Under the pieces are notes generated by a model, which was given only the letters and a program-made list of their open reading frames with translations, was not told where the DNA came from and ran no database searches. A DNA stretch of 64,000 nt from Whalleya microplaca (Eukaryota; Ascomycota; Sordariomycetes; Xylariales; Xylariaceae), in NCBI GenBank assembly GCA_022497155.1, contig MU385773.1, positions 124,001 through 188,000 of the forward strand. Reading direction: 5' to 3'. Below are positions 49,187 through 60,787 of the stretch, one piece after another (position 1 is the stretch's first letter; every line of letters starts with the position of its first letter). The position numbers were made by a program, and so were the translations under genes.

Positions 49187-51009
49187 TTAGGATTGGATAG
49201 TACCATCGGTACCAGGCCTTGGTGCACCTGTTGCTAGTTTACCCATGAAACCACCGCTGACCAAGTTCATCGCAGTCGAAAAGGGGTCTGCGCCAGTCTT
49301 CTCCGCCTTCTGCAAGCCAGCGGCGGTGAAAGCTTGTTCGAAGTCGCGTCTAATATCTTCGAAATCCTCAATGCCTAAACTGACGCGGAGGAGATCGGCT
49401 GTACATCATGGGTTATCAAATCAGCAAAATGTTCTCAAATCATGGATGGAGAGAAAACCGTGAGGGATTCACATACGCGTAACGCCGCCCTTGATCTTCT
49501 CTTCGTCGGGCATCTGTTGATGTGTCGTAACCCACGGGTGGATGATCAGTGTCTTACAGTCGCCGACATTGGCCAAGTGGCTGGCCATCTTCAGGTTATC
49601 TACTACGGCGCGGACTTGCTCAACTTTTCCAGCCTACAATAAAATTAGCAAGGAACTCCTTTAAGTCCATATAGGAGTTGTGTTTTAGTACATACCACAC
49701 CAAAAGTCAGGACACCCCCAGCACCCTTGGGCAAAATTTCCTTTGAAAGTTCATAGTCGGGGTGTGACTTCAAGCCCGGGTACAGAACCCAACTGATGCA
49801 AGGATGAGCCTCAAGCCACTCTGCCAGCTTTTGCGTGTTTTCGATGGTCCTTTGACCACGTAGCGGTAGTGTCTCGAGGCCTTGAAGGAATAGCCAGGCG
49901 TTGAAGGGACTCATGCAAGGACCGAGATCGCGCATGCTGTCCATTCGCAACTTCGCCGCCAGCGCCTTCTTTCCGTACGTCTCCCAGAAACGCATCCCGT
50001 GGTAGCCTTCAGCTGGCTCCGTGAAACCGGGAAACTTGCCGGAGGCGCTCCAGTCGAAATGCCCTCCATCAATTACGATGCCACCCATGCTGGTTCCATG
50101 ACCACCTATCCATTTGGTACAGGAGTGTGTTACAATGTCGGCTTTAGAATCAAGTCAGCCTATAGGCTCTACAGCTTATAGTTGTCGAGCTTGTTTAGTT
50201 ACCTCCGAGTTTGATGGGCTGACATAAATATCCGCCCATACCAAAAGTGTTGTCAATAATCAGGGGAATGCCATGTTTGTGAGCTACATCAGCGATCTTT
50301 CTGATATCTGGAACACTGTGCTTCGGGTTGCTGATCGTTTCGATGTAGATGGCTCTCGTGTTCTCGTCCACAGCCTCGTCAAATTTTGCTGGGTCGTTAC
50401 CGACCACCCATTTGACACTGATCTTGAACTTGTTCAGATATACTCGAAACTGATTGAAGCTACCTCCATATACTGCCACAACCCAGAATTCTCAGTATGG
50501 AAAGTGACAATAAAACATCCAAGAGTATATCTACTTACACCAACTAGTACTAATGAAATTTTGTCCCGGCTCGCAACAGTTGGTGAGGGCCATGAACTAC
50601 ATGGCATCTATCAGCATATGGATAACAGTTTTCTGTTTCTATGATCGTGTGTTCACCTGTGCGGAATGGCCCGATGCAGTAGCTACTGCTCCAACGCCAC
50701 CCTCTAACATGGACATTCTGGTCTCGAAGACAGTGTTCGTGGGATTGCCCATTCGGGTGTAGACGTATCCATCCCTGGACCAAGCGAACTTGCTAGCCCC
50801 ATCTGCTGCATCGGAGAAATTATATGCCGCGGTCTGGTAAAGGGGTACCGCTCTTGCGCCGTTGATCGGATCGGGCTCTTGTCCGCCATGGACGGCAATG
50901 GTGTTGAAACTGGGCTCCCTGTTGTACAATCCTTGTCAGAATGATGAATCTTGAAGGTGTTATAGGAGCATTACCAGTCTAAGTTACTGATTGATCCTGG
51001 CGGAGGCAT
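49187..51009 (-). CDS. MET17: O-acetylhomoserine (thiol)-lyase, gamma-class PLP enzyme
   Basis: Family members replace the acetate of O-acetyl-L-homoserine by sulfide, thiols or, in specialised forms such as Fub7 and LolC, by carbon or nitrogen nucleophiles. Seven exons (51009-50988, 50931-50657, 50596-50539, 50472-50203, 50141-49696, 49633-49477, 49398-49187) sum to 479 residues in phase. Marks: [72 protein letters not shown], the pyridoxal-phosphate Lys in [12 protein letters not shown], and LRVSLGIED. The 22-nt first exon is the weakest part; it assumes a GTAACT donor. The next three genes rightward are a nitrilase, a homoserine acetyltransferase and an aspartate kinase, which suggests a specialised rather than a housekeeping role. 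The symbol is the family name; orthology to the housekeeping gene is not claimed. A CACGTG lies 580 bp upstream. Confidence 0.92.
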
Positions 51010-51590
51010 GGTGAGTTTAGGTTTGTTCGGGTTTGTTTTGTGAACAGAAAGTAGCTGATGAGTATTTTCAGATGTCTTCGTTACGTGAAGGACAAAATCA
51101 GTCTGCGATTGCTATGAACTATATGATTTATAGTTACGTTCGACTTTAAATGCTCAATGGATTCGGGCAAAGCGACTGGACTCGAGTCAGGAGAAGCAAA
51201 CATCGACACGACCCCTCCTCACCTTGGTCGTCACCACCCTGACAGGACCAGATAAGATAATAGATCCCTCACTTCCCCCGTATGCGACCAGTATGCGGCA
51301 TTGGTCACGGTCTGACTGCGATGTAACACAAGCAAACCCCGAGAGCTCCGCATTCGTCGGATGAGAGACCCACCCAGCGCCTCGTTGGTCATGTAGGTAT
51401 CGCTTCCTATGCATATCGAGTGTGCATCATGCGAGGCACAGCCGTTTTCCCCGCACATAGTCAGACGTCGTCAGCTTCTTGATAACGGCGGCTGTTATAT
51501 CTCTGAGAGGATATCTCCACCCTGACCCGAGAATCCGGCGCGTTTGTCTCAGGGGGACGGGTAGCGGCCTTAAGCTACCTAGATGCATCT

Positions 51591-51596
51591 CACGTG
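51591..51596. promoter_or_regulatory. CACGTG E-box
   Basis: CACGTG, the Cbf1-type site used with Met4 at sulfur genes in yeast, lies 582 bp upstream of the lyase start. In filamentous fungi sulfur control uses Cys3/MetR with another site, so the link is tentative. Confidence 0.25.
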
Positions 51597-51833
51597 CCTA
51601 GGTTACTTAAGCGAAGGGGATCGCAAGCTTCAAGGTGAACAGCTGGCTTTTATGTAATCGTTACTAGCATGCTTTCAGTCTGTTCGCCCACACAAGTCGA
51701 CTATCTCATAACTACTTAAGTGCCCCTGGCTTATCGGAATGCTTGGCTGAAGGTTACAATATCTACTCTACTACGGATTCAGACTAAAGTTACCCCTTGT
51801 TATAGTATCATCTTCCATTCGCCATACCAGATC

Positions 51834-51858
51834 TTGTTGTTGTTGTTGTTGTTGTTGT
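51834..51858. repeat. TTG trinucleotide microsatellite
   Basis: About eight TTG copies in non-coding sequence. Confidence 0.9.
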
Positions 51859-52181
51859 ATTGTTTAACGTCTGAGCTGAAGTGGTGTGCACCTCCTTCGG
51901 CAACCTCCCTAGGGGTATGGGACGTGGCAAGCTAACTACACTATAACTACATACAGTTGTTTGAGGCCATATCGTGTCTCTAGGACTCAGCATTCCCTAA
52001 ACAGTGGCCGCTACCCCATACCAGATCTTGAAAGTTTAAAACAGATACTAGTGAAATGAAGTCTCTGCTAGGTTCCTCATCTAGCACGTAACTACTGCTA
52101 GAGGAAAGAAATACTATTGATACCGTAGTACGAAGTGATAGGTACGAGTTTGATATCAGGAGACTTGTTTATGCTCACTAC

Positions 52182-53581
52182 TCATTGGGTGAAGTTGACG
52201 TTTGTCCCCGGTTTGGTGTTGACCGTTAGTGTACTGCCGTTCAAGGGATATCAGCTATACTGTCCAATTCTTCCCTATTGGAACATAGAGTAGACTGGCG
52301 GAAGTACTCACAACACATCTGGACGGGCATAACTGCCAACAGCATCGAAGTCAAGCTATATTAACCTGTCAGTTCCTTCCAAAAAGGTGTAAGTAGATTG
52401 AGACTGGAGACTCACTCTGGATTCTGTGATCTCTGGCATCTTCAGGTCGGCGTAGATGATCTCCTCTCTATCCCATAATGGCTCTGTCAAGGGAACCCCT
52501 AATGGTCCCACAACAAAGGAGCCTCCATGATTTACCACGTCGTTAGGCTCCCACTTTGAGCCGTCTGGTTTCCTGTCGTGAGATTCAGGGGCAAAAGGCG
52601 GATAATCTAGCGGAAAATCTGACACCTTGCACATCGAGTTGACAGAAATAACGAAGCACCGGCCTTCCTTAGCGATATGCTGCATCGATGCGCTCCACGA
52701 TGGCAGATCATCCGCATTTGGAGCCAGATATATCCTGGTTTTCTATGTGTCAGTTTTTGATTCGGGCCGTAATTTGTATAAGCGGATTGACTTACTCGAC
52801 TCCTTGTTGGTAGAGAGCTAGTCGAGCTGCTGGCATGTAGTTCTCCCAACTTTCACATGTTAGCGTTTCAGAGTTCATGTTATCATTATAACGTACATAC
52901 CATATCAATGTGCCAATTTTGCCAATATCAGTTTGGACAACGCCAAGACCATCCCCTGAGCCTCTTCCCCAAATAAGACGCTCCGCAGCCGTCGGAATCA
53001 ACTACTCCACATTTAGTCTCTACAAGGCAAGGGACCCATTGTAGAACTTGACCACCCACTTTGCGATGCTTCAACAACACCGATCCGTCTCGTCCAACTA
53101 ACAAGGCGGTGCAATACAATGTCCCCCCGTCTTTCTCGATAATGCCGACCTGTATGTATACACGGTGCGACTTAGCTGCTTTCGAAATGACATCAACCGC
53201 CGGCGAGGGCACCGCAACGGCTGACTCGTAGTATTTTGCATACCACTCTCTGCCTGTCCGAGGTCAATTCTTGAGCCTCCACCCGACTGTTTAATAGCTC
53301 CTCACCGCGGGACTCACGAGCTCCAACCGTGGAATCAAAAGCATATCGCCACGGGTATGCTGAGAGAAACGCCTCCCTATATGATAGCTCACTTAGACAC
53401 TATTCATTTTATTGGCCAGTAAAGAGTCCAAATCCACAACTTACGGGAATACAATGAGCTCAGCTCCTGCAGTTGCAGCTTCCGCGGCAATCTTCGTCAA
53501 TTTCTCTAAACTCCTTTCCAGGTCGAAGGACACAGGTGCAGCCTGCACAGCGGCGACCTTGACGGTGCGAGGGTGGGCCAT
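52182..53581 (-). CDS. Nitrilase-family C-N hydrolase
   Basis: Eight exons (53581-53445, 53376-53306, 53253-53060, 53001-52901, 52849-52796, 52734-52416, 52355-52312, 52233-52182) give 323 residues, the usual nitrilase length, in phase throughout. The Glu-Lys-Cys triad is complete: Glu in [13 protein letters not shown], Lys in [18 protein letters not shown] and Cys in IGTLICWENYMP. The catalytic Cys codon is split by an intron (TG|T at 52901/52849). After it come [22 protein letters not shown] and SYARPDV, all typical of true nitrilases rather than amidases. The enzyme should turn a nitrile into carboxylate and ammonia; aliphatic or aryl specificity cannot be read. It is transcribed divergently from the homoserine acetyltransferase across a 710-bp shared promoter and sits next to the O-acetylhomoserine lyase, so its substrate may derive from that pathway. 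Confidence 0.92.
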
Positions 53582-54291
53582 AGTGTCGGCGCCAGAGAAG
53601 CTTGAGATGTTGGGCCTGAGTGACAACCAAGGGCCTTGATACCATGGGTTTAAGAGATAAGTAGTAGGACAGAGCAGCGCTGTGCGGTTGTTATGCTTGC
53701 TCCTATTTGTCTGGGGAAATTTCGCCCCCTACAAGCGCCCTGTGGAAGACATCCAGACGGAGGGCCTTGTGGACATCGTTCGATGCTGCCAACGCACCCA
53801 CAAGCACAAGACACGATGATAGGTCACTGTCAGCCAAGACGATCTCGAGTGGAGATGCTCACCTTCATCCTCACTGCATGGGATAAGCTGGGGGTTTGTG
53901 GGGCCCCAAGCGTGCGTGCTGGCACAACATAATACTACTACACTGCGGCGCGACGCAGATCCCGAAGTAAGCAAATCCCGGGTGTTAAGCTGACTGCCCG
54001 AACACCGCTGATAAGGGGACACCCTTAGCTTCGATACCTCGGTCCAGGATTTGTCAGACGGTATCCGTCGTGCTCCATAACGGTGTGTGGGTGGCGTAGT
54101 ATATGCAGTTTGCTTGCCGACATGTCGGGACGAAGATAGTCCCGAGCTCGGGTGGAGCCATATACAGCTATGACCTTACCTAGCTGTGTAAGTAGCTCTC
54201 CCAGAGCAGGTTTGCTACTCGAACCGACTAGTTAACCTATCTTCGTAGTCTCTCGCTCCTTGTTGAACCAGGAACAGATTCGCAAATCACA
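53582..54291. promoter_or_regulatory. Shared divergent promoter, nitrilase / homoserine acetyltransferase
   Basis: These 710 bp separate the two start codons. The region contains two perfect GC-rich palindromes: GACGGTATCCGTC (54057-54069, a CGG-N3-CCG inverted repeat) and CCCGAGCTCGGG (54141-54152). Zn2Cys6 regulators typically bind CGG half-sites in such arrangements. Co-regulation of both genes is inferred. Confidence 0.5.
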
Positions 54292-55927
54292 ATGGCAACT
54301 CGTAAGTGAGCCTTGCAAGTCCTCTCAGGAGATATTCTCACAGGACGCAGTTCTTGACTACAACCCCAACCCACAGAATGTCTACGCAGATTTGATTCAG
54401 GGGCAGAAATTTGCACTCATACCAAGACTATGTCTCGACTCTGGAGAAGTTCTCGAGTCATGTCCGGTCGCCTACAAGACCTGGGGTCAGCTCAACGAAA
54501 GTTGTGACAACGTCTTGGTATTGTGCCATGCCCTGACCGGTAGTAGCGATGTCAGTGACTGGTGGAGTTCGTTAGTTGGTTATGGAAAAGCATTTGAGTA
54601 CGTCTTTTGAGTCTCTGGTTCCAATCTTAGTCTGCTCGAAGAACCAATTCCACCAACTAGAATCAGGGGTCCTGGGGCAGAGCCATAATACCTGGAATTC
54701 ATCAAAGAGAATTCACTAACTCTAGATTGCTTGTAGTCCGGCACATTTCTTCATCTTCTGCGGCAATGTCCTTGGCTCACCGTACGGGAGCGCGTCGCCC
54801 CTAACCATAGATCCGCGAACAGGAATGCGGTACGCCAGCGACTTCCCACAGACGACGGTCCGTGACGACGTAAGGTACGCGAGCTACCCCTTTATATCTC
54901 CCATATGTATAGAATAATGTCTATCAGACGCTAACCCCCTTTTCTTCCATCCAGGGCACACAAGCATGTCCTCGACGCCCTCGGCGTTCGCTCCGTAGCC
55001 TCCGTGATTGGTGGATCTATGGGTGGCATGACGACGCTCGAGTGGCCGCTCTGCACGGCGCCCGGCTACGTCCAGTCCATCATCCCCATCGCAACGGCTG
55101 CCGACCATAGCGCCTGGGGCATCTCGTGGGCTGAGACCCAGCGCCAGTGCATTTACTCGGACCCCCGGTTCGCCGATGGCGACTACGACCCCGTGCCCGC
55201 GGGACAGCCGGCCGCGGGCCTCGCCGCCGCCCGTATGGTCGCCATGCTAACGTATCGCTCGTGCGTCAGCTTCGACGCGCGGTTCGGCCGCAAGCCACCG
55301 CCGTCATCTTCGCCGTCGGCAGGGCGGGCGAAGCCGAGATCTGTGCCCGAGCCGCCGCTTGATCTCCCGCGCACGGACGTGCCGCCTGCCGCGCCGGCGG
55401 CCCCAAAGACTGCAGAGAGGGAGAGGAAAAAGAGTTGGGGTGCCGGGGCGCCGCGCGAGCCCTCGTTCTCCGCACAGGGGTACCTGCATTATCAGGGGCA
55501 AAAGTTCGTGCAGCGGTTCGACGCCAACTGCTACTTACACATCACGAATAAGATGGACGCGCACGACGTGACGCTGGGGCGGAGGGAGCCGCAATCAGCA
55601 GACCACGACGCCGCCGCATTACGGGAGGTGTTATCGAGAGTGCCGTCGGGGGCCCTGGTGGTCAGCGTAGAGACGGACGCGCTGTTCCTCCCCGAACAGC
55701 AAGAGCGCCTCGCGGCCTGTCTGCCTGACGCTACGCTGGCGACGCTGAGGTCATCGGATGGGCACGATGGGTTCCTGCTGGAGTTTGAACAGCTACAGGC
55801 GTTGATCTTGGGGAAGCTAAAGAGGGATTTTCCACATTTCTACGAAGCTACTACGGGGACTGACTGGACCGAGGAACCTACGGGGCTTCGGAAAGGTAGT
55901 CTGACGGGAGAGGTTGAAGCATGGTGA
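54292..55927 (+). CDS. MET2: Homoserine O-acetyltransferase
   Basis: It transfers acetyl from acetyl-CoA to homoserine, making the O-acetylhomoserine used by the lyase two genes away. Four exons (54292-54301, 54351-54597, 54737-54874, 54955-55927) encode 455 residues. Exon 1 is only 10 nt (Met-Ala-Thr plus one base); the acceptor at 54350 was chosen because it alone fits the phase. The alpha/beta-hydrolase core has LCHALTGSSDVSDWW, FIFCGNVLGSPYGSASP, the nucleophile Ser in IGGSMGGMTTLEW, and the Asp and His in VETDALF and SSDGHDGF. A Pro/Ser/Ala-rich insert of about 60 residues lies between FDARFGRK and QGYLHYQGQKF, as in many fungal homologues, and exon 4 is very GC-rich. Fub5 of the fusaric acid cluster belongs to the same family; whether this copy is the housekeeping one cannot be decided here. 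Confidence 0.93.
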
Positions 55928-56401
55928 AGCAGAGATGGATTTATGACACTATAGTTTATTGTAATATTAAAGCGTTGATTTAAATTAGCTAAATTTCACT
56001 ATTATTCCTTCAAAACCAAGATCTCGACCAGCCAATCTAGAAATGGCACAAGTGTCAGCACGCAATCTCTTCGTGAGATGTGTATATTCATGATCGAATG
56101 AGCAAAGCGGCTCATATTACAACTACCTAGCTTGTAGATTTCATCAGCCGCATGACCTCTGCTTATGGTGGTGATATGGGAGTCAGAACTAGTAAACAAG
56201 TTGACTCCGAGAAAATTATCGCCCCTGATAATTACCGGATGAACGCCACTATCATACGAAGAGGAAAATCAGCAGATAGCACTTGATATCGGCATGCTGG
56301 TGAAGCCGACGTTGATGCGAGGATAGTGGAATCATGATCATTCCCCGATGAGGTCCACAACCTAACGATTGCCGTCCGGACATCTCCAGTTAATGGCGCG
56401 A

Positions 56402-56437
56402 CGACGTTATCGACGTTATCGACGTTATCGACGTTAT
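56402..56437. repeat. CGACGTTAT tandem repeat, four perfect copies
   Basis: Four identical 9-bp units, 36 bp in total. Each unit contains ACGT and AACGTT-like cores. Non-coding. Confidence 0.93.
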
Positions 56438-56889
56438 TCCCCTAGACCCGGCCAGGCGAGCACGTCTTACTTGGTAGTAAGGGGATTGAATGGATGTTTT
56501 GGTTTTCCCCACTGCTCTAGGCTATTTTGGCGTTGTGGTTTCCTATCTTTCGGTTATGTGAGAGGCTCTAAAGCCTTCTAGCGCTGTGCCCAACAAGGGA
56601 TCTTATCGTTCCTCAAGACACCACGTATGACCGAACCGAAGTAAATAGGGGAGGGGATTCACCGAGGAGACAGGAGTTACGGCTACGTAATCTTAAAAGG
56701 ATTCCACATCAAACACCGCGTTAATTTTGACCCGGAAATGGGGAAAGATCTCGTCGCACAACCCAGAGGGTGTGGACAGCCCTACGTATCGCAAACGCCG
56801 GGCGGGATCTGTAACCCCATCCCGTCCCACTCACGGATTCTAGTTTTAGGCGCGACCTTTTTCAGCTAGCTTCTCCAGATTCCTAATGC

Positions 56890-56902
56890 GGGGACCGTCC
56901 CC
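56890..56902. promoter_or_regulatory. GGGGAC-C-GTCCCC palindrome
   Basis: A perfect 6-bp inverted repeat with a 1-bp spacer, 340 bp upstream of the aspartate kinase start. It is a candidate regulator site; no known factor is assigned. Confidence 0.35.
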
Positions 56903-57241
56903 TCTCTTCTGTCTACTGTGTAGGTCGACCGAGATGCAATGTCGCAGTCGGACGGCCCCGGGTTGCATTTTGTTTCCTGCTGTGTGCTGCATCCCAAGGC
57001 CCAACCGGGTGACGCAACCCCGTGGGCTTATTTGGCGACTCCCCCCCTAGAAAAGCGTGCGGCTGCTTTCGGTCGTTGGGTTCTTGGCAAACCCCTTGCT
57101 TTCACCCGAAGGGGCAGTCGAATAGGGCGTATATAAAAATGCCAACGTAGGTATATTAGCTTGGCAGTCAATAAATCCTCTCCATAGGTATTCCTATCTC
57201 GACTACCTTCATTCATCGAATCGCGCGAAATATTCACTATC

Positions 57242-59269
57242 ATGGTAACGACAACAGTCCCGAGCAAGCCGTGGCTAGTACAGAAGTATGGGGGCACCAG
57301 CCTGGGCAAGATGTTACACACAATCTGCAGTGCTATTATCCCTCAGTACAGCGAGGAGCACAATCTCATCGTCGTATGTTCTGCGTTCTCCGGCACCCTG
57401 AAAGCAAGTGGCACGACGAGCCTGCTGCTGGAATGCATCGCATATGCCGAGCTCGGTGTGGAGGCGCAAAAGCAATTGATCGATTTGGTGGACGTGATCA
57501 AGGGGAATCACTTGCATGTGCTGGACTCCCTTGCAAGCTTACCCGCGCGGGGGTTCCCACAGATCTTCGATGAGACGAGATCGAGCATAGAAAAGGAGTG
57601 CGAGAGCCTGAAGAGGTTTCTGCTGGCTGCCCAGGTAGGTAAGGCTCGGTGATGTCATATCGGCTGATAAAGCTGACGTTAGTCAGATCGTGGGTGAATT
57701 ATCACCGCGTTCTAAGGACCGGGTTATTTCTCTAGGCGAGAAGCTCGCGTGTATGATTGTCGCGGCATATCTGACAAGCGTGGTGCGTTTATCTCGAGGC
57801 ATTGAGGCTCTGGGAGCCAATGGAGAAAAATCGTACTGATGTCAACTTAGGGTATTCCTGCGAAAGCGATCTTTCTCGACAATGTGATAGCTTCGGCTTT
57901 CGGAAACTCTATCCACGACCAAGTCGCTGCGCTCGAGAGGCTGGGTTCGCAGTTCTACCACGTTGTGGCTGATCAAATAGCCACGCGTGTTCGAGACTGC
58001 AGGGGTGCCATCCCTATTGTGACGGGTAAGAAGGAACTCTACGTTGCGGTTTTCAAGAATCGGGCTGACCTTGCTAGGGTTCTTTGGTATCATGCCAAAC
58101 TCGCTGCTCGAGACCGTGGGAAGGGGTTATTCGGACCTCTGTGCGGCCATGTGTGCAGTGGCAGTCGGTGCGATAGAATTACAAATATGGAAAGAAGTGG
58201 ATGGTATATTCACCGCAGACCCGAGAAAGGTTCCGTCAGCACGGTTACTGTCAACTGTTACTCCCGAAGAAGCAGCGGAGCTCACATATTATGGAAGCGA
58301 AGTGAGTCGATCTGATCAGCGTAAAGGCCGACCTGCTGACCCTGCGGAAGGTTATTCATCCATTGACAATGGATCAAATCCAAGACGCCGGCATACCTTT
58401 GCGTCTGAAAAACGTCTTCAAGCCGCTCGGAAGTGGCACGATAATCTACCCCTCGGCGGGATCTTCAACCCCCTGCAGCCCAGCGAGCGACTCCTCCGAA
58501 GACTCATTTAACTCTTCTCCGATAACTCCATCATCGAGTTTTATGCTCAAGAATGGTTACCACGGTGCTCAACAGGAGCGTAGAAAACCTACAGCGGTCA
58601 CCGTTAAAGACGACATCTTTCTCATCAATGTTATTTGTAACCGAAATACCAAATCTCAAGGCTTCCTATCGCAAGTATTCGACCGCCTCGAGCGAAATAA
58701 GATCCCCGCCGACTTGGTAGCGACGAGCGAACGTCATGTTAGCCTTGCTGTACAGTCACCAGGCGACTCAAGCGCGATGCTGAGACTCAAAGAGGAACTC
58801 GAACGGTTCGGCCAGGTTTCGATATTTCCAAATATGTCCATCGTGACGGTCGTCGGCCATAAGATGTGCAATATGGTTGGGGTATCTAGTGAGTATCTAC
58901 CATATTTGAAGTGAGCGTTACCGGGTGTCCGTTGAGTCCCTAACAGCTTGCAGACGAGATACTGTCCGCTTTAGCCAAGGCGCAGATTGACATATATCTG
59001 ACTAGTCAAGGCGCAAGCCAGATAAACATTTCGTGAGTCAGCTCCTTGGTTCATTGGCATCTGATACACTGCTAACGTTCAGTGAAAGGCTGGTTGTGAG
59101 TGCAGATGATGATCTCGCAGCAATGAATGCTATACATAGAGAAGTCCTGAAGATACCGACGCATAGAGAACAAGAGAATCGATTTATTCCTGGTAGGTCT
59201 CCCGTCTTTCGGGAGAGCTGCTCAACATAAGCTGATACACATACCTATGCAGGACCATGGCTTTACTGA
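57242..59269 (+). CDS. HOM3: Aspartate kinase
   Basis: It phosphorylates L-aspartate, the entry step to homoserine, methionine and threonine. Eight exons (57242-57634, 57687-57782, 57851-58025, 58078-58301, 58351-58888, 58954-59032, 59083-59192, 59253-59269) encode 543 residues in phase. Marks: KYGGTSLGK, LGEKLACMIVAAYL, GFFGIMPNS, GRGYSDLCAA, WKEVDGIFTADPRKV, TYYGSEVIHPLTM. Two ACT-type regulatory segments follow, the first after a Ser-rich linker and starting VKDDIFLINVICN, the second containing GVSNEILSALAKA; here pathway end products would bind. The catalytic N-lobe reads CSAFSG where most family members have CSARS, and other N-lobe positions are diverged, which suits a specialised copy. 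Fub3 of the fusaric acid cluster is the precedent. The symbol is the family name only. Confidence 0.93.
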
Positions 59270-59628
59270 AGTATTGGTGTGCACACTAGAACAGAGATGG
59301 GCGTTTTACGAGACACATGTTCTGCATATATACCCAAATCTTTGACATTGTACATAGAATATAAACACAGATACACTTGTAGAAAAGGGATGACATTGAT
59401 GTAATGTGTAATGATGGCGGACAGGGGTTTAAGAATTGGAGAGCCTCGGTTGCTCCCAGGACCCACTAAATATTATCTTATACAATACCTCGATTAGTGA
59501 CCTACGCCGGTATTATTTCATCATTGCTTGATACTCTTAAGTCAATCCTCTTGAAATGCCCAAGATGTAACTAATGTCTGCGCTTTGTTAACCGTTGAAA
59601 CCTAACGTTAAACCTCAACCTGTACAGA
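59270..59628. other. Intergenic stretch
   Basis: This 360-bp space lies between the kinase and the dehydrogenase, which point the same way. Nothing was recognised. Confidence 0.5.
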
Positions 59629-60787
59629 ATGGATGACAGAAAGGTGGCGCTCGTTGTTGGCGCGTCTAGAGGCATTGGGAGGCAGATAGCCATTGACTTG
59701 GCGAAGAATGGGTATGCTGGTATGTCTGTACTTGAATTGCTTGATTTAAAGCAGAGTTCCTGACGACGTTTATCTAGTTGTCGTGTCGGCCAAGTCGGTC
59801 AGCTATGCCCGGAGCGTCGTGCCATTTCCGCCAGATCCCAACTCTTCACAGTCAACTATCAGCACAGTTGAGCGGGAGATAGTCGAATCGGGTGGACAGG
59901 CGACGGCGATTCCAGTAGATGTCAGGGATTTCGCCAGTATCGAGAGACTAGTAGAACAGACTATTCAAGTATCTACTCTCATTCCTACCTATATCTAGAT
60001 ATTCCGGCTAGGATTTGCTGACGAAGTACGAAGACATACGGCCATCTAGATGTCCTGGTCTACAACTCCGGCGCCATCTGGTGGGCCTCCGTGGAAGACA
60101 CGCCGATGAAACGCTTCCAGTTGATGCAGAGAGTAAACCCGGAGGGCCTCTACGGGACCGTCCAAGCGGCCCTGCCGCACCTCAAGAAGTATCGGACGGG
60201 TCGGATCGTCGTCGTGAGCCCACCCATCTACAGTCGATTCTTCCGCGGAAAGACGGCCTACGCGATGGGAAAGGTGGGCATGAGTGTGCTCACGAAGGGC
60301 CTCGCCATGGACTTCCAGAGGCAGGGCCTCACGGAGATGGCGATCACGAGCCTGTGGCCTGCGGTGGTGAGTGAAATGTCCTCTCTCCCCCTCCTTTCCT
60401 CCCATACAACGCCATACAACCTCAAACCCAAACCTCAAAAAGAACATCACTGACTCGCATATCTAACAGGCAATCGAATCCGCCGCCACGCAGAAGATGA
60501 CGCAGAAGAACCCAGACGAGGCGCGCGATCTCAGAAAAGCGACCGTGTTCTCCGACGCCGTGCTCGCCATACTGCGTGCGCCTGCGTCGCGCGTCAACGG
60601 ACAGCTAGAACTCGACGAGGATTTCCTGCGGAATTACGGGGGAGTAATAGATTTCTCCAAATACGCGCTGGTGCCTGGGTCCTCGCCCCGGCGGATCATG
60701 CCGGCTGAGCTGCCGGACTTGACGGTCAGAGAGCAGGATGATGAGGGCAAGAGGATGGATAGCGCGAAGGACAGGTCGAAGCTGTGA
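59629..60787 (+). CDS. Short-chain dehydrogenase/reductase (HSDL2-like)
   Basis: Four exons (59629-59719, 59778-59968, 60034-60366, 60470-60787) encode 310 residues in phase. The Rossmann motif GASRGIG is near the N-terminus. The family NAG motif appears as NSGA. The catalytic Ser lies in VVVSPPIYSRF and the Tyr-Lys pair in TAYAMGKVGM. The segment ALPHLKK and the C-terminal LELDEDFLRNYGG resemble HSDL2 and the related fungal dehydrogenases found in several metabolite clusters. An insert (PFPPDPNSSQSTISTV) follows the second strand. The substrate is unknown. It lies 360 bp after the aspartate kinase and may be the last gene of the cassette; the link is by position only. Confidence 0.9.

What the first reader, a model, noticed from the sequence alone, without database searches (positions are those of the whole stretch)
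49187..60787. Compact five-gene cassette: O-acetylhomoserine lyase, nitrilase, homoserine acetyltransferase, aspartate kinase, SDR
Three enzymes of one route (aspartate kinase, homoserine O-acetyltransferase, O-acetylhomoserine lyase) sit within 12 kb and would channel aspartate to O-acetylhomoserine and a gamma-substituted amino acid. Known precedent: FUB3, FUB5 and FUB7 in the fusaric acid cluster, and LolC chemistry in lolines. Here no polyketide synthase, NRPS or transporter is present, and a nitrilase and an SDR take their place. I infer a stand-alone module for a non-proteinogenic amino acid, or a relic of a larger cluster. The alternative is chance clustering of housekeeping genes.
Basis: partly seen in the sequence, partly recalled or inferred. 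Interest (0 to 1): 0.9.

Follow-up and report, generated by a model that had tools for sequence, protein, structure and literature searches.

The report
Conserved fungal cyanide-assimilation-like gene cluster
Five neighbouring genes in a fungus form a gene cluster whose parts stay together in many other moulds; the enzymes look as if they could fix poisonous cyanide onto an amino acid and then turn the product into glutamate, but this has not been tested at the bench.

Summary
Five intact, intron-rich genes (lyase, NIT4-type nitrilase, homoserine acetyltransferase, aspartate kinase, SDR) fill 49187-60787. They are not the housekeeping copies: paralogues of the lyase, acetyltransferase and kinase lie elsewhere. 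The lyase is not FUB7-like: FUB7 pairs with this genome's own C5 copy (100/99), the window lyase sits in a separate 100/100 clade. It is hardly a relic: kinase and nitrilase share a contig in 33 cases, lyase and nitrilase in 5, lyase and kinase in 5. No ketoacyl-synthase or condensation-domain match lies on the contig. Best reading, about 0.45: the set supplies O-acetylhomoserine, the lyase adds cyanide to give gamma-cyano-alpha-aminobutyrate, and the nitrilase hydrolyses it to glutamate/glutamine, a one-carbon-longer analogue of the plant cyanoalanine route. The nitrilase's nearest solved relative is Arabidopsis NIT4 (296 bits, next 178). The cyanide step is inference. A gamma-substituted specialised metabolite is the main rival.

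The parts
49187..51009 (-). OAHL: O-acetylhomoserine/O-acetylserine sulfhydrylase-type PLP enzyme, 7 exons (51009-50975, 50918-50657, 50596-50539, 50472-50203, 50141-49696, 49633-49477, 49398-49187), 479 aa
   Evidence: gene model; TIGR01326 586 bits; tree; relatives
52182..53581 (-). NIT: NIT4-type nitrilase, 8 exons, 323 aa, catalytic Glu47-Lys134-Cys168 present
   Evidence: gene model; PDB best hit NIT4, 44% identity over 315 aligned columns; conserved columns; tree
53582..54291 (.). divergent intergenic region (710 bases) between nitrilase and acetyltransferase; two 12-base palindromes at 54117 (CCGACATGTCGG) and 54141 (CCCGAGCTCGGG), possible regulator sites
   Evidence: no conservation test possible
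54292..55927 (+). HAT: homoserine O-acetyltransferase (MetX type), 4 exons; first exon/N-terminus uncertain
   Evidence: gene model; own-genome copies
57242..59269 (+). AK: aspartate kinase, 8 exons; 100% identical to Whalleya microplaca P0001 over 99% of the query
   Evidence: gene model (exon 7 start revised to 59089)
59629..60787 (+). SDR: short-chain dehydrogenase of the HSDL2-like type, 4 exons, 310 aa
   Evidence: gene model; NF006133 (below its cut-off); PDB 3e03 and 3kvo; AK-SDR run-together gene model in Xylaria curta, 62% identity
47680..48405 (-). DSBA-like thioredoxin-fold ORF downstream of OAHL; possible sixth member or only neighbour
   Evidence: Pfam PF01323; run together with OAHL in the gene model of Parahypoxylon ruwenzoriense P0244, 55% identity

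Best explanation
The five genes are a metabolic cluster of Pezizomycotina, most likely for assimilating (and so detoxifying) cyanide. Aspartate kinase and homoserine O-acetyltransferase, with the one aspartate-semialdehyde dehydrogenase found elsewhere in the genome and with homoserine dehydrogenase or the SDR, supply O-acetylhomoserine. The PLP lyase replaces the acetyl group by cyanide, giving gamma-cyano-alpha-aminobutyrate. The NIT4-type nitrilase turns this into glutamate plus ammonia, with some glutamine. Net: aspartate + HCN gives glutamate + NH3. It would be the one-carbon-longer counterpart of the plant route cysteine + HCN to beta-cyanoalanine to Asp/Asn by NIT4. Shown: the enzymes' families, the separateness from the other copies in the genome, the linkage across species for kinase, nitrilase and lyase. 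Inferred: cyanide as nucleophile, gamma-cyano-alpha-aminobutyrate as the nitrilase substrate, HAT as a lasting member, and the role of the SDR.
For: Only the nitrilase says what functional group is involved: nearest PDB relative NIT4, 296 bits against 178 for the next (44% identity), inside a NIT4-type group with bacterial nitrilases and Arabidopsis NIT4, apart from Nit6803 (97/98). Two characterised fungal NIT4-like nitrilases (NitTv1, NitAb; their sequences were not compared with this one) had their highest activity on beta-cyano-L-alanine, giving Asp and Asn; NitAb has hundreds of homologues in Pezizomycotina at ca. 50-70% identity (PMC7503981, passages). Gamma-cyano-alpha-aminobutyric acid synthase is a recognised bacterial cyanide-assimilating activity (PMC13257105 table, passages), and gamma-replacement on O-acetylhomoserine is what the lyase's family does (recalled). 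Linkage: AK-NIT 33 exact contig-length matches against a chance mean of 0.009; NIT-OAHL 5; AK-OAHL 5. Gene numbers are adjacent or nearly so in Anthostomella pinea, Xylaria grammica and Colletotrichum jinshuiense. Four Fusarium relatives have the kinase run together in the gene model with an aspartate-semialdehyde dehydrogenase, a further enzyme of the same supply route. No ketoacyl-synthase or condensation-domain match on the contig.
Against: No sequence feature shows that the lyase uses cyanide; sulfide or a carbon nucleophile fits the family as well. In bacteria, NIT4-like nitrilases are not linked to such lyases: a lyase match in 2 of 80 loci. HAT lies between NIT and AK here, but the gene numbers of A. 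pinea and X. grammica leave no gene between them, so HAT may not be a fixed member; HAT and SDR were not searched in other fungi. The SDR has no place that is required. The genome holds a second NIT4-like nitrilase on C29. Contig sharing is not neighbourhood: 10 of the 33 AK-NIT contigs exceed 1 Mb. No expression data.
Confidence: 0.45

Rival explanations
1. A specialised-metabolite module: the lyase joins O-acetylhomoserine to a carbon or nitrogen nucleophile, the nitrilase and SDR trim the product, and the non-proteinogenic amino acid is the end product or is passed to another pathway.
For: AK, HAT and lyase together recall FUB3/5/7 (recalled) in function; dedicated copies apart from the others in the genome; an SDR is a usual tailoring enzyme.
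Against: No ketoacyl-synthase or condensation-domain match on the contig; lyase not in FUB7's group; wide and well conserved distribution, the lyase being 66-93% identical in the named Pezizomycotina rows transcribed, more like a primary or detoxification pathway. The genome has another locus, C3, that looks more like such a cluster.
Confidence: 0.27
2. An alternative sulfur route: a second, differently regulated homocysteine synthase with its own O-acetylhomoserine supply, with the nitrilase a fellow traveller acting on plant nitriles.
For: The lyase passes TIGR01326 (586 bits, cut-off 495) and its best PDB relative is the homocysteine/cysteine synthase 8ovh (504 bits), which I take to be yeast Met17 (recalled).
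Against: The nitrilase is linked to the kinase in 33 cases, which this idea leaves unexplained; a copy grouping with Met17-like enzymes exists on C5.
Confidence: 0.13
3. Beta-cyanoalanine route: the lyase works on O-acetylserine plus cyanide, and the nitrilase gives Asp/Asn as in plants.
For: The lyase family model covers O-acetylhomoserine and cysteine synthase activities (TIGR01326 description); fungal nitrilases of the NIT4 type preferred beta-cyanoalanine (PMC7503981 passages).
Against: Would leave aspartate kinase and homoserine acetyltransferase in the cluster without use.
Confidence: 0.1
4. Chance neighbourhood of housekeeping genes.
For: Each of the lyase, acetyltransferase and kinase families also exists as a housekeeping enzyme.
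Against: Separate copies in the same genome and recurrent linkage in other fungi.
Confidence: 0.03

Closest known systems
Plant beta-cyanoalanine synthase / NIT4 cyanide detoxification
   Same: PLP enzyme makes a cyano amino acid, NIT4-type nitrilase hydrolyses it; the nitrilase here is nearest to NIT4 among solved structures (44% identity)
   Different: Different PLP fold (recalled) and acceptor (O-acetylhomoserine type, gamma- instead of beta-carbon), clustered genes, dedicated precursor supply; activity not shown
Bacterial gamma-cyano-alpha-aminobutyric acid synthase
   Same: Same proposed reaction product (PMC13257105 table, passages)
   Different: Listed for bacteria in that table; in bacteria I saw no linked lyase in 78 of 80 loci with NIT4-like nitrilases, some of them short
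Fusaric acid cluster FUB3/FUB5/FUB7
   Same: Same three enzyme families feeding a gamma-substitution (recalled)
   Different: No ketoacyl-synthase or condensation-domain match on the contig; the lyase belongs to another clade than FUB7; nitrilase and HSDL2-like SDR instead
Loline LolC and citrinadin-type CndF (recalled)
   Same: Fungal PLP enzymes that replace the acetoxy group of O-acetylhomoserine
   Different: Sequences not compared here
Fungal nitrilases NitTv1 and NitAb
   Same: NIT4-like; homologues of NitAb across Pezizomycotina (PMC7503981 passages)
   Different: Their sequences were not compared with this nitrilase; no gene cluster in the passages seen; the term O-acetyl does not occur in that paper's main text

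Membership tests
O-acetylhomoserine/O-acetylserine sulfhydrylase family (TIGR01326) | score over the curated cut-off, full length of the model | tested here: met
   586 bits against 495, residues 16-433
Gamma-cyano-alpha-aminobutyrate synthase | use of cyanide as nucleophile | not testable with these tools
   needs enzyme assay
NIT4-type nitrilase | catalytic Glu-Lys-Cys and nearest kinship to NIT4 rather than to other nitrilases or cyanide hydratase | tested here: met
   E47 and K134 invariant, C168 nearly invariant in 20 sequences (their catalytic role is recalled); NIT4 296 bits, next 178, cyanide dihydratases 161-163, cyanide hydratase 116; tree
NIT4-type nitrilase | activity on cyano amino acids | not testable with these tools
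   only by analogy with NitTv1 and NitAb (PMC7503981)
Homoserine O-acetyltransferase MetX | score over curated cut-off | tested here: inconclusive
   NF001209 341 against 331 passes; TIGR01392 411 against 500 does not
Aspartate kinase | score over curated cut-off | tested here: met
   TIGR00657 281 against 209
FUB-type (fusaric acid) cluster | lyase orthologous to FUB7 | tested here: not met
   FUB7 pairs with own copy C5 at 100/99; window lyase in a separate clade at 100/100
FUB-type (fusaric acid) cluster | polyketide synthase nearby | tested here: not met
   0 of 108 ketoacyl-synthase matches on this contig
FUB-type (fusaric acid) cluster | NRPS-like gene nearby | tested here: inconclusive
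   0 of 31 condensation-domain matches on this contig, but an NRPS-like gene needs only an adenylation domain and only 14 of 82 such candidates were scored, none on this contig
FUB-type (fusaric acid) cluster | kinase and acetyltransferase orthologous to FUB3 and FUB5 | not tested
   no FUB3 or FUB5 sequence in hand
Conserved fungal gene cluster | recurrent linkage in other species | tested here: met
   33 AK-NIT, 5 NIT-OAHL, 5 AK-OAHL exact contig-length matches; HAT not tested; SDR in one run-together model

The most novel reading that the evidence does not exclude
An old, dedicated cyanide-assimilation gene cluster of filamentous ascomycetes that uses O-acetylhomoserine as the acceptor and converts aspartate plus HCN into glutamate through gamma-cyano-alpha-aminobutyrate: a eukaryotic, clustered pathway for a reaction that the table I saw lists for bacteria.
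Probability: 0.42. Interest if true: 0.85.

Novelty: new variant of a known kind. Interest (0 to 1): 0.62.

Why it matters
If true, it gives genes to the old observation (recalled, not looked up) that fungi put labelled cyanide into amino acids, offers a reason why NIT4-like nitrilases are so widespread in Pezizomycotina, shows how plant-associated fungi could live with cyanide from cyanogenic plants and ethylene synthesis, and offers a bioremediation enzyme pair. Even if the nucleophile is not cyanide, the linkage table defines a conserved fungal cluster that my paper searches did not find described, with a lyase clade distinct from Met17-like enzymes.

Tried and rejected
FUB-like cluster: rejected for the lyase by the tree. 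Relic: judged unlikely from the linkage. A dedicated aspartate-semialdehyde dehydrogenase in this genome: only one place found, on C40. Regulator motifs in the four promoter regions: GATA-like sites occur in all four and others in some, which such short motifs do by chance; no word of 9 bases occurs in three or more of the regions. Specificity positions of the lyase (19 clade rows against 13 outgroup rows; five of the 37 tree rows left out): ten found, e.g. Asp51 against His in 13 of 13 outgroup rows and Trp291 against Phe in 9 of 13; not interpretable without a structure with ligand. Adenylation domains and MFS transporters on the contig: inconclusive, 14 of 82 and 9 of 561 candidates scored.

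Paper searches for the cluster: 2 of 2 hits listed; 6 of 7; 20 of 142; 15 of 344; 10 of 10; 12 of 21; 12 of 2165; 8 of 8; 12 of 18. No paper on it among those listed; unlisted hits were not seen, and the library lacks most subscription journals.

Linkage table: I transcribed all 120 kinase rows, 101 of 120 nitrilase rows and 23 of 120 lyase rows; the rest were left out (for the nitrilase unnamed or bacterial rows; for the lyase unnamed, bacterial and most basidiomycete and other fungal rows below about 60% identity, and some unnamed rows above that). The chance control was run for the kinase-nitrilase pair only. Contig-length equality shows the same contig, not neighbourhood: of the 33 contigs, 4 are under 60 kb, 7 under 200 kb and 10 over 1 Mb. 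5 of 36 shared species names had different contigs in the script; one of these (Colletotrichum noveboracense) has another kinase row that does match. In one search the other copies of the nitrilase (163-288 aa) were partial, which favours the window copy in that comparison.
Full report
What is there. Five intact genes occupy 49187-60787: OAHL and NIT on the minus strand, HAT, AK and SDR on the plus strand, with NIT and HAT reading away from each other over a 710-base region. The coordinates of the finding match the lyase stop codon and the SDR stop codon exactly. All splice sites are GT..AG and no frame is broken; the models are mine, the N-terminus of HAT is uncertain, and the acceptor of AK exon 7 was revised after seeing relatives. 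Of 20 ORFs scanned in the rest of the window, those with a Pfam match are ordinary genes (UTP10, a thiamine enzyme, aminotransferase, acyltransferase, LMBR1, lectin, zinc finger, protein kinase, DSBA).

Which organism. The window lies on contig C64, 272,487 bases. The aspartate kinase is 100% identical, over 99% of its length, to one from Whalleya microplaca on a contig of the same length, an ascomycete of the Xylariales.

Not the housekeeping copies. The lyase family has further members on C42, C6, C5, C3, C7 and C9. To the window lyase, C5 is 49% identical, C3 47%, C42 30%, C6 29%. HAT has copies on C6 (44% over the joined stretch, 58% in its best piece) and C19 (34%), and a weak match on C42; AK has one other, on C4 (36% over the joined stretch, 45% in the piece); NIT has weaker relatives on C29, C53 and C2. 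In the lyase tree (37 rows) the window lyase lies in a clade of 21 rows with 100/100 support and a stem of 0.57 changes per column; its 19 named rows are Pezizomycotina, two are unnamed. The C5 copy groups with FUB7 (100/99) among Met17-like enzymes (90/93). All 120 kinase relatives score higher to the window AK than to the C4 copy. All 120 nitrilase relatives score higher to the window NIT than to the C29, C53 or C2 copies, but these were partial. For the lyase, 70 of 120 are nearest to the window copy and 50 to C5, because the list runs into general homocysteine synthases.

Conserved linkage. AK and NIT share a contig length in 33 cases (chance mean 0.009, maximum 1, in 1000 jittered trials), NIT and OAHL in 5, AK and OAHL in 5 (rows left out are told under Tried and rejected). 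Four of the 33 contigs are under 60 kb, ten over 1 Mb. The cases cover Xylariales, Colletotrichum, Sporothrix, Thozetella (Sordariomycetes); Microthyrium, Aulographum, Amniculicola, Rhizodiscina, Lepidopterella, Dendryphion (Dothideomycetes); Paecilomyces and Rasamsonia (Eurotiomycetes); Tricladium (Leotiomycetes); class names recalled. All three genes on one contig were seen only in Parahypoxylon. Gene numbers support neighbourhood: Anthostomella pinea 060780 (AK) and 060790 (NIT), Xylaria grammica g1087 and g1088, Colletotrichum jinshuiense X_000486 and X_000484. Gene models that run two genes together give the same message: AK-SDR in Xylaria curta (SDR part 62% identical to the window SDR), OAHL-DSBA in Parahypoxylon (DSBA part 55%), and AK-aspartate-semialdehyde dehydrogenase in four Fusarium rows (P0098, P0105, P0106, P0115). 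Against a fixed five-gene set: in A. pinea and X. grammica no gene number is left for HAT between NIT and AK, and HAT was not searched in other fungi.

What it does. The nitrilase decides the reading. Its nearest solved relative is Arabidopsis NIT4, 296 bits (44% identity over 315 aligned columns), with the next at 178, cyanide dihydratases at 161-163 and cyanide hydratase at 116; it carries the conserved Glu, Lys and Cys. In the tree the fungal rows (95/93) join a group holding bacterial NIT4-like rows and Arabidopsis NIT4 (97/98), apart from Nit6803 and the C53 and C2 copies. NIT4 acts on beta-cyanoalanine; two characterised fungal NIT4-like nitrilases, not compared with this one by sequence, had beta-cyano-L-alanine as best substrate, yielding Asp and Asn, and one of them, NitAb, has hundreds of homologues across Pezizomycotina (PMC7503981, passages). 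A lyase of the O-acetylhomoserine type next to a nitrilase for cyano amino acids suggests gamma-cyano-alpha-aminobutyrate as the link. That compound is a bacterial product of cyanide assimilation (PMC13257105, table passage; another passage of that paper says of a list of absent enzymes, this one seemingly among them, that they are found mainly in bacteria and in some fungi and mammals; Brysk and Ressler 1970 seen only as a reference in PMC13320846). It is also a methionine analogue that E. coli puts into protein, though reported as nontoxic there (PMC13320846, abstract), which would be a reason to couple its formation to a nitrilase. AK and HAT, and in some Fusarium a dehydrogenase, would feed the acceptor. 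In this genome aspartate-semialdehyde dehydrogenase was found in one place, on C40. The SDR is HSDL2-like; a role as semialdehyde reductase is a guess.

Limits. That the lyase uses cyanide is inference. Bacterial NIT4-like loci do not show the linkage (a lyase match in 2 of 80). A second NIT4-like nitrilase lies on C29. Nothing is known here about expression. The specialised-metabolite reading stays open: no ketoacyl-synthase (0 of 108) or condensation-domain match (0 of 31) lies on the contig, but adenylation domains and MFS transporters could not be excluded (14 of 82 and 9 of 561 candidates scored).

In print. My searches showed no paper on such a cluster among the hits listed; several listings were cut, and the library is open-licence only. 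I saw passages of PMC7503981, PMC6928751 and PMC13257105, and passages plus abstract of PMC13320846; all others only as listings. FUB, LolC and CndF functions are recalled.

Noticed in passing
own genome C3:346000-365000 (L120, L121): A second locus with an O-acetylhomoserine-sulfhydrylase-like gene beside a Zn2Cys6 regulator, an FAD monooxygenase, an SDR and P450 genes: a better candidate than the window for a FUB/LolC-like specialised cluster. The nearest ketoacyl-synthase match on C3 is at 872 kb and no condensation-domain match lies on C3.
   Followed up: partly
own genome C29:83921-87444 (L124:4922-8445): A second NIT4-like nitrilase whose two halves of the CN-hydrolase domain lie in ORFs about 1.9 kb apart with a 535-aa ORF without Pfam match between them; interrupted gene or two genes.
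   Followed up: no
window 54117-54152: Two 12-base palindromes, CCGACATGTCGG and CCCGAGCTCGGG, starting 24 bases apart in the divergent NIT-HAT region; the only ones of 26 such palindromes in the window with a CCG..CGG arrangement and a spacer.
   Followed up: partly
lyase tree rows P0249, P0288 and P0255: The lyases of Paecilomyces variotii and Aspergillus cavernicola are sister to the Sordariomycetes group (98/95), while another Eurotiomycete, Rasamsonia, falls with Leotiomycetes (94/88): old duplication or horizontal transfer.
   Followed up: no
P0098, P0105, P0106, P0115: In four Fusarium relatives the kinase gene model runs into an aspartate-semialdehyde dehydrogenase, so the dehydrogenase gene is probably a neighbour there.
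   Followed up: partly
window 56405-56440: Short tandem repeat of TCGACGTTA upstream of the aspartate kinase gene (seen).
   Followed up: no
lyase tree rows P0251, P0252, P0254: A second lyase subclade (Seiridium, Nemania diffusa, Xylariaceae AK1471; 100/100); in AK1471 it lies on another contig than AK and NIT, so it may be an unclustered paralogue.
   Followed up: no
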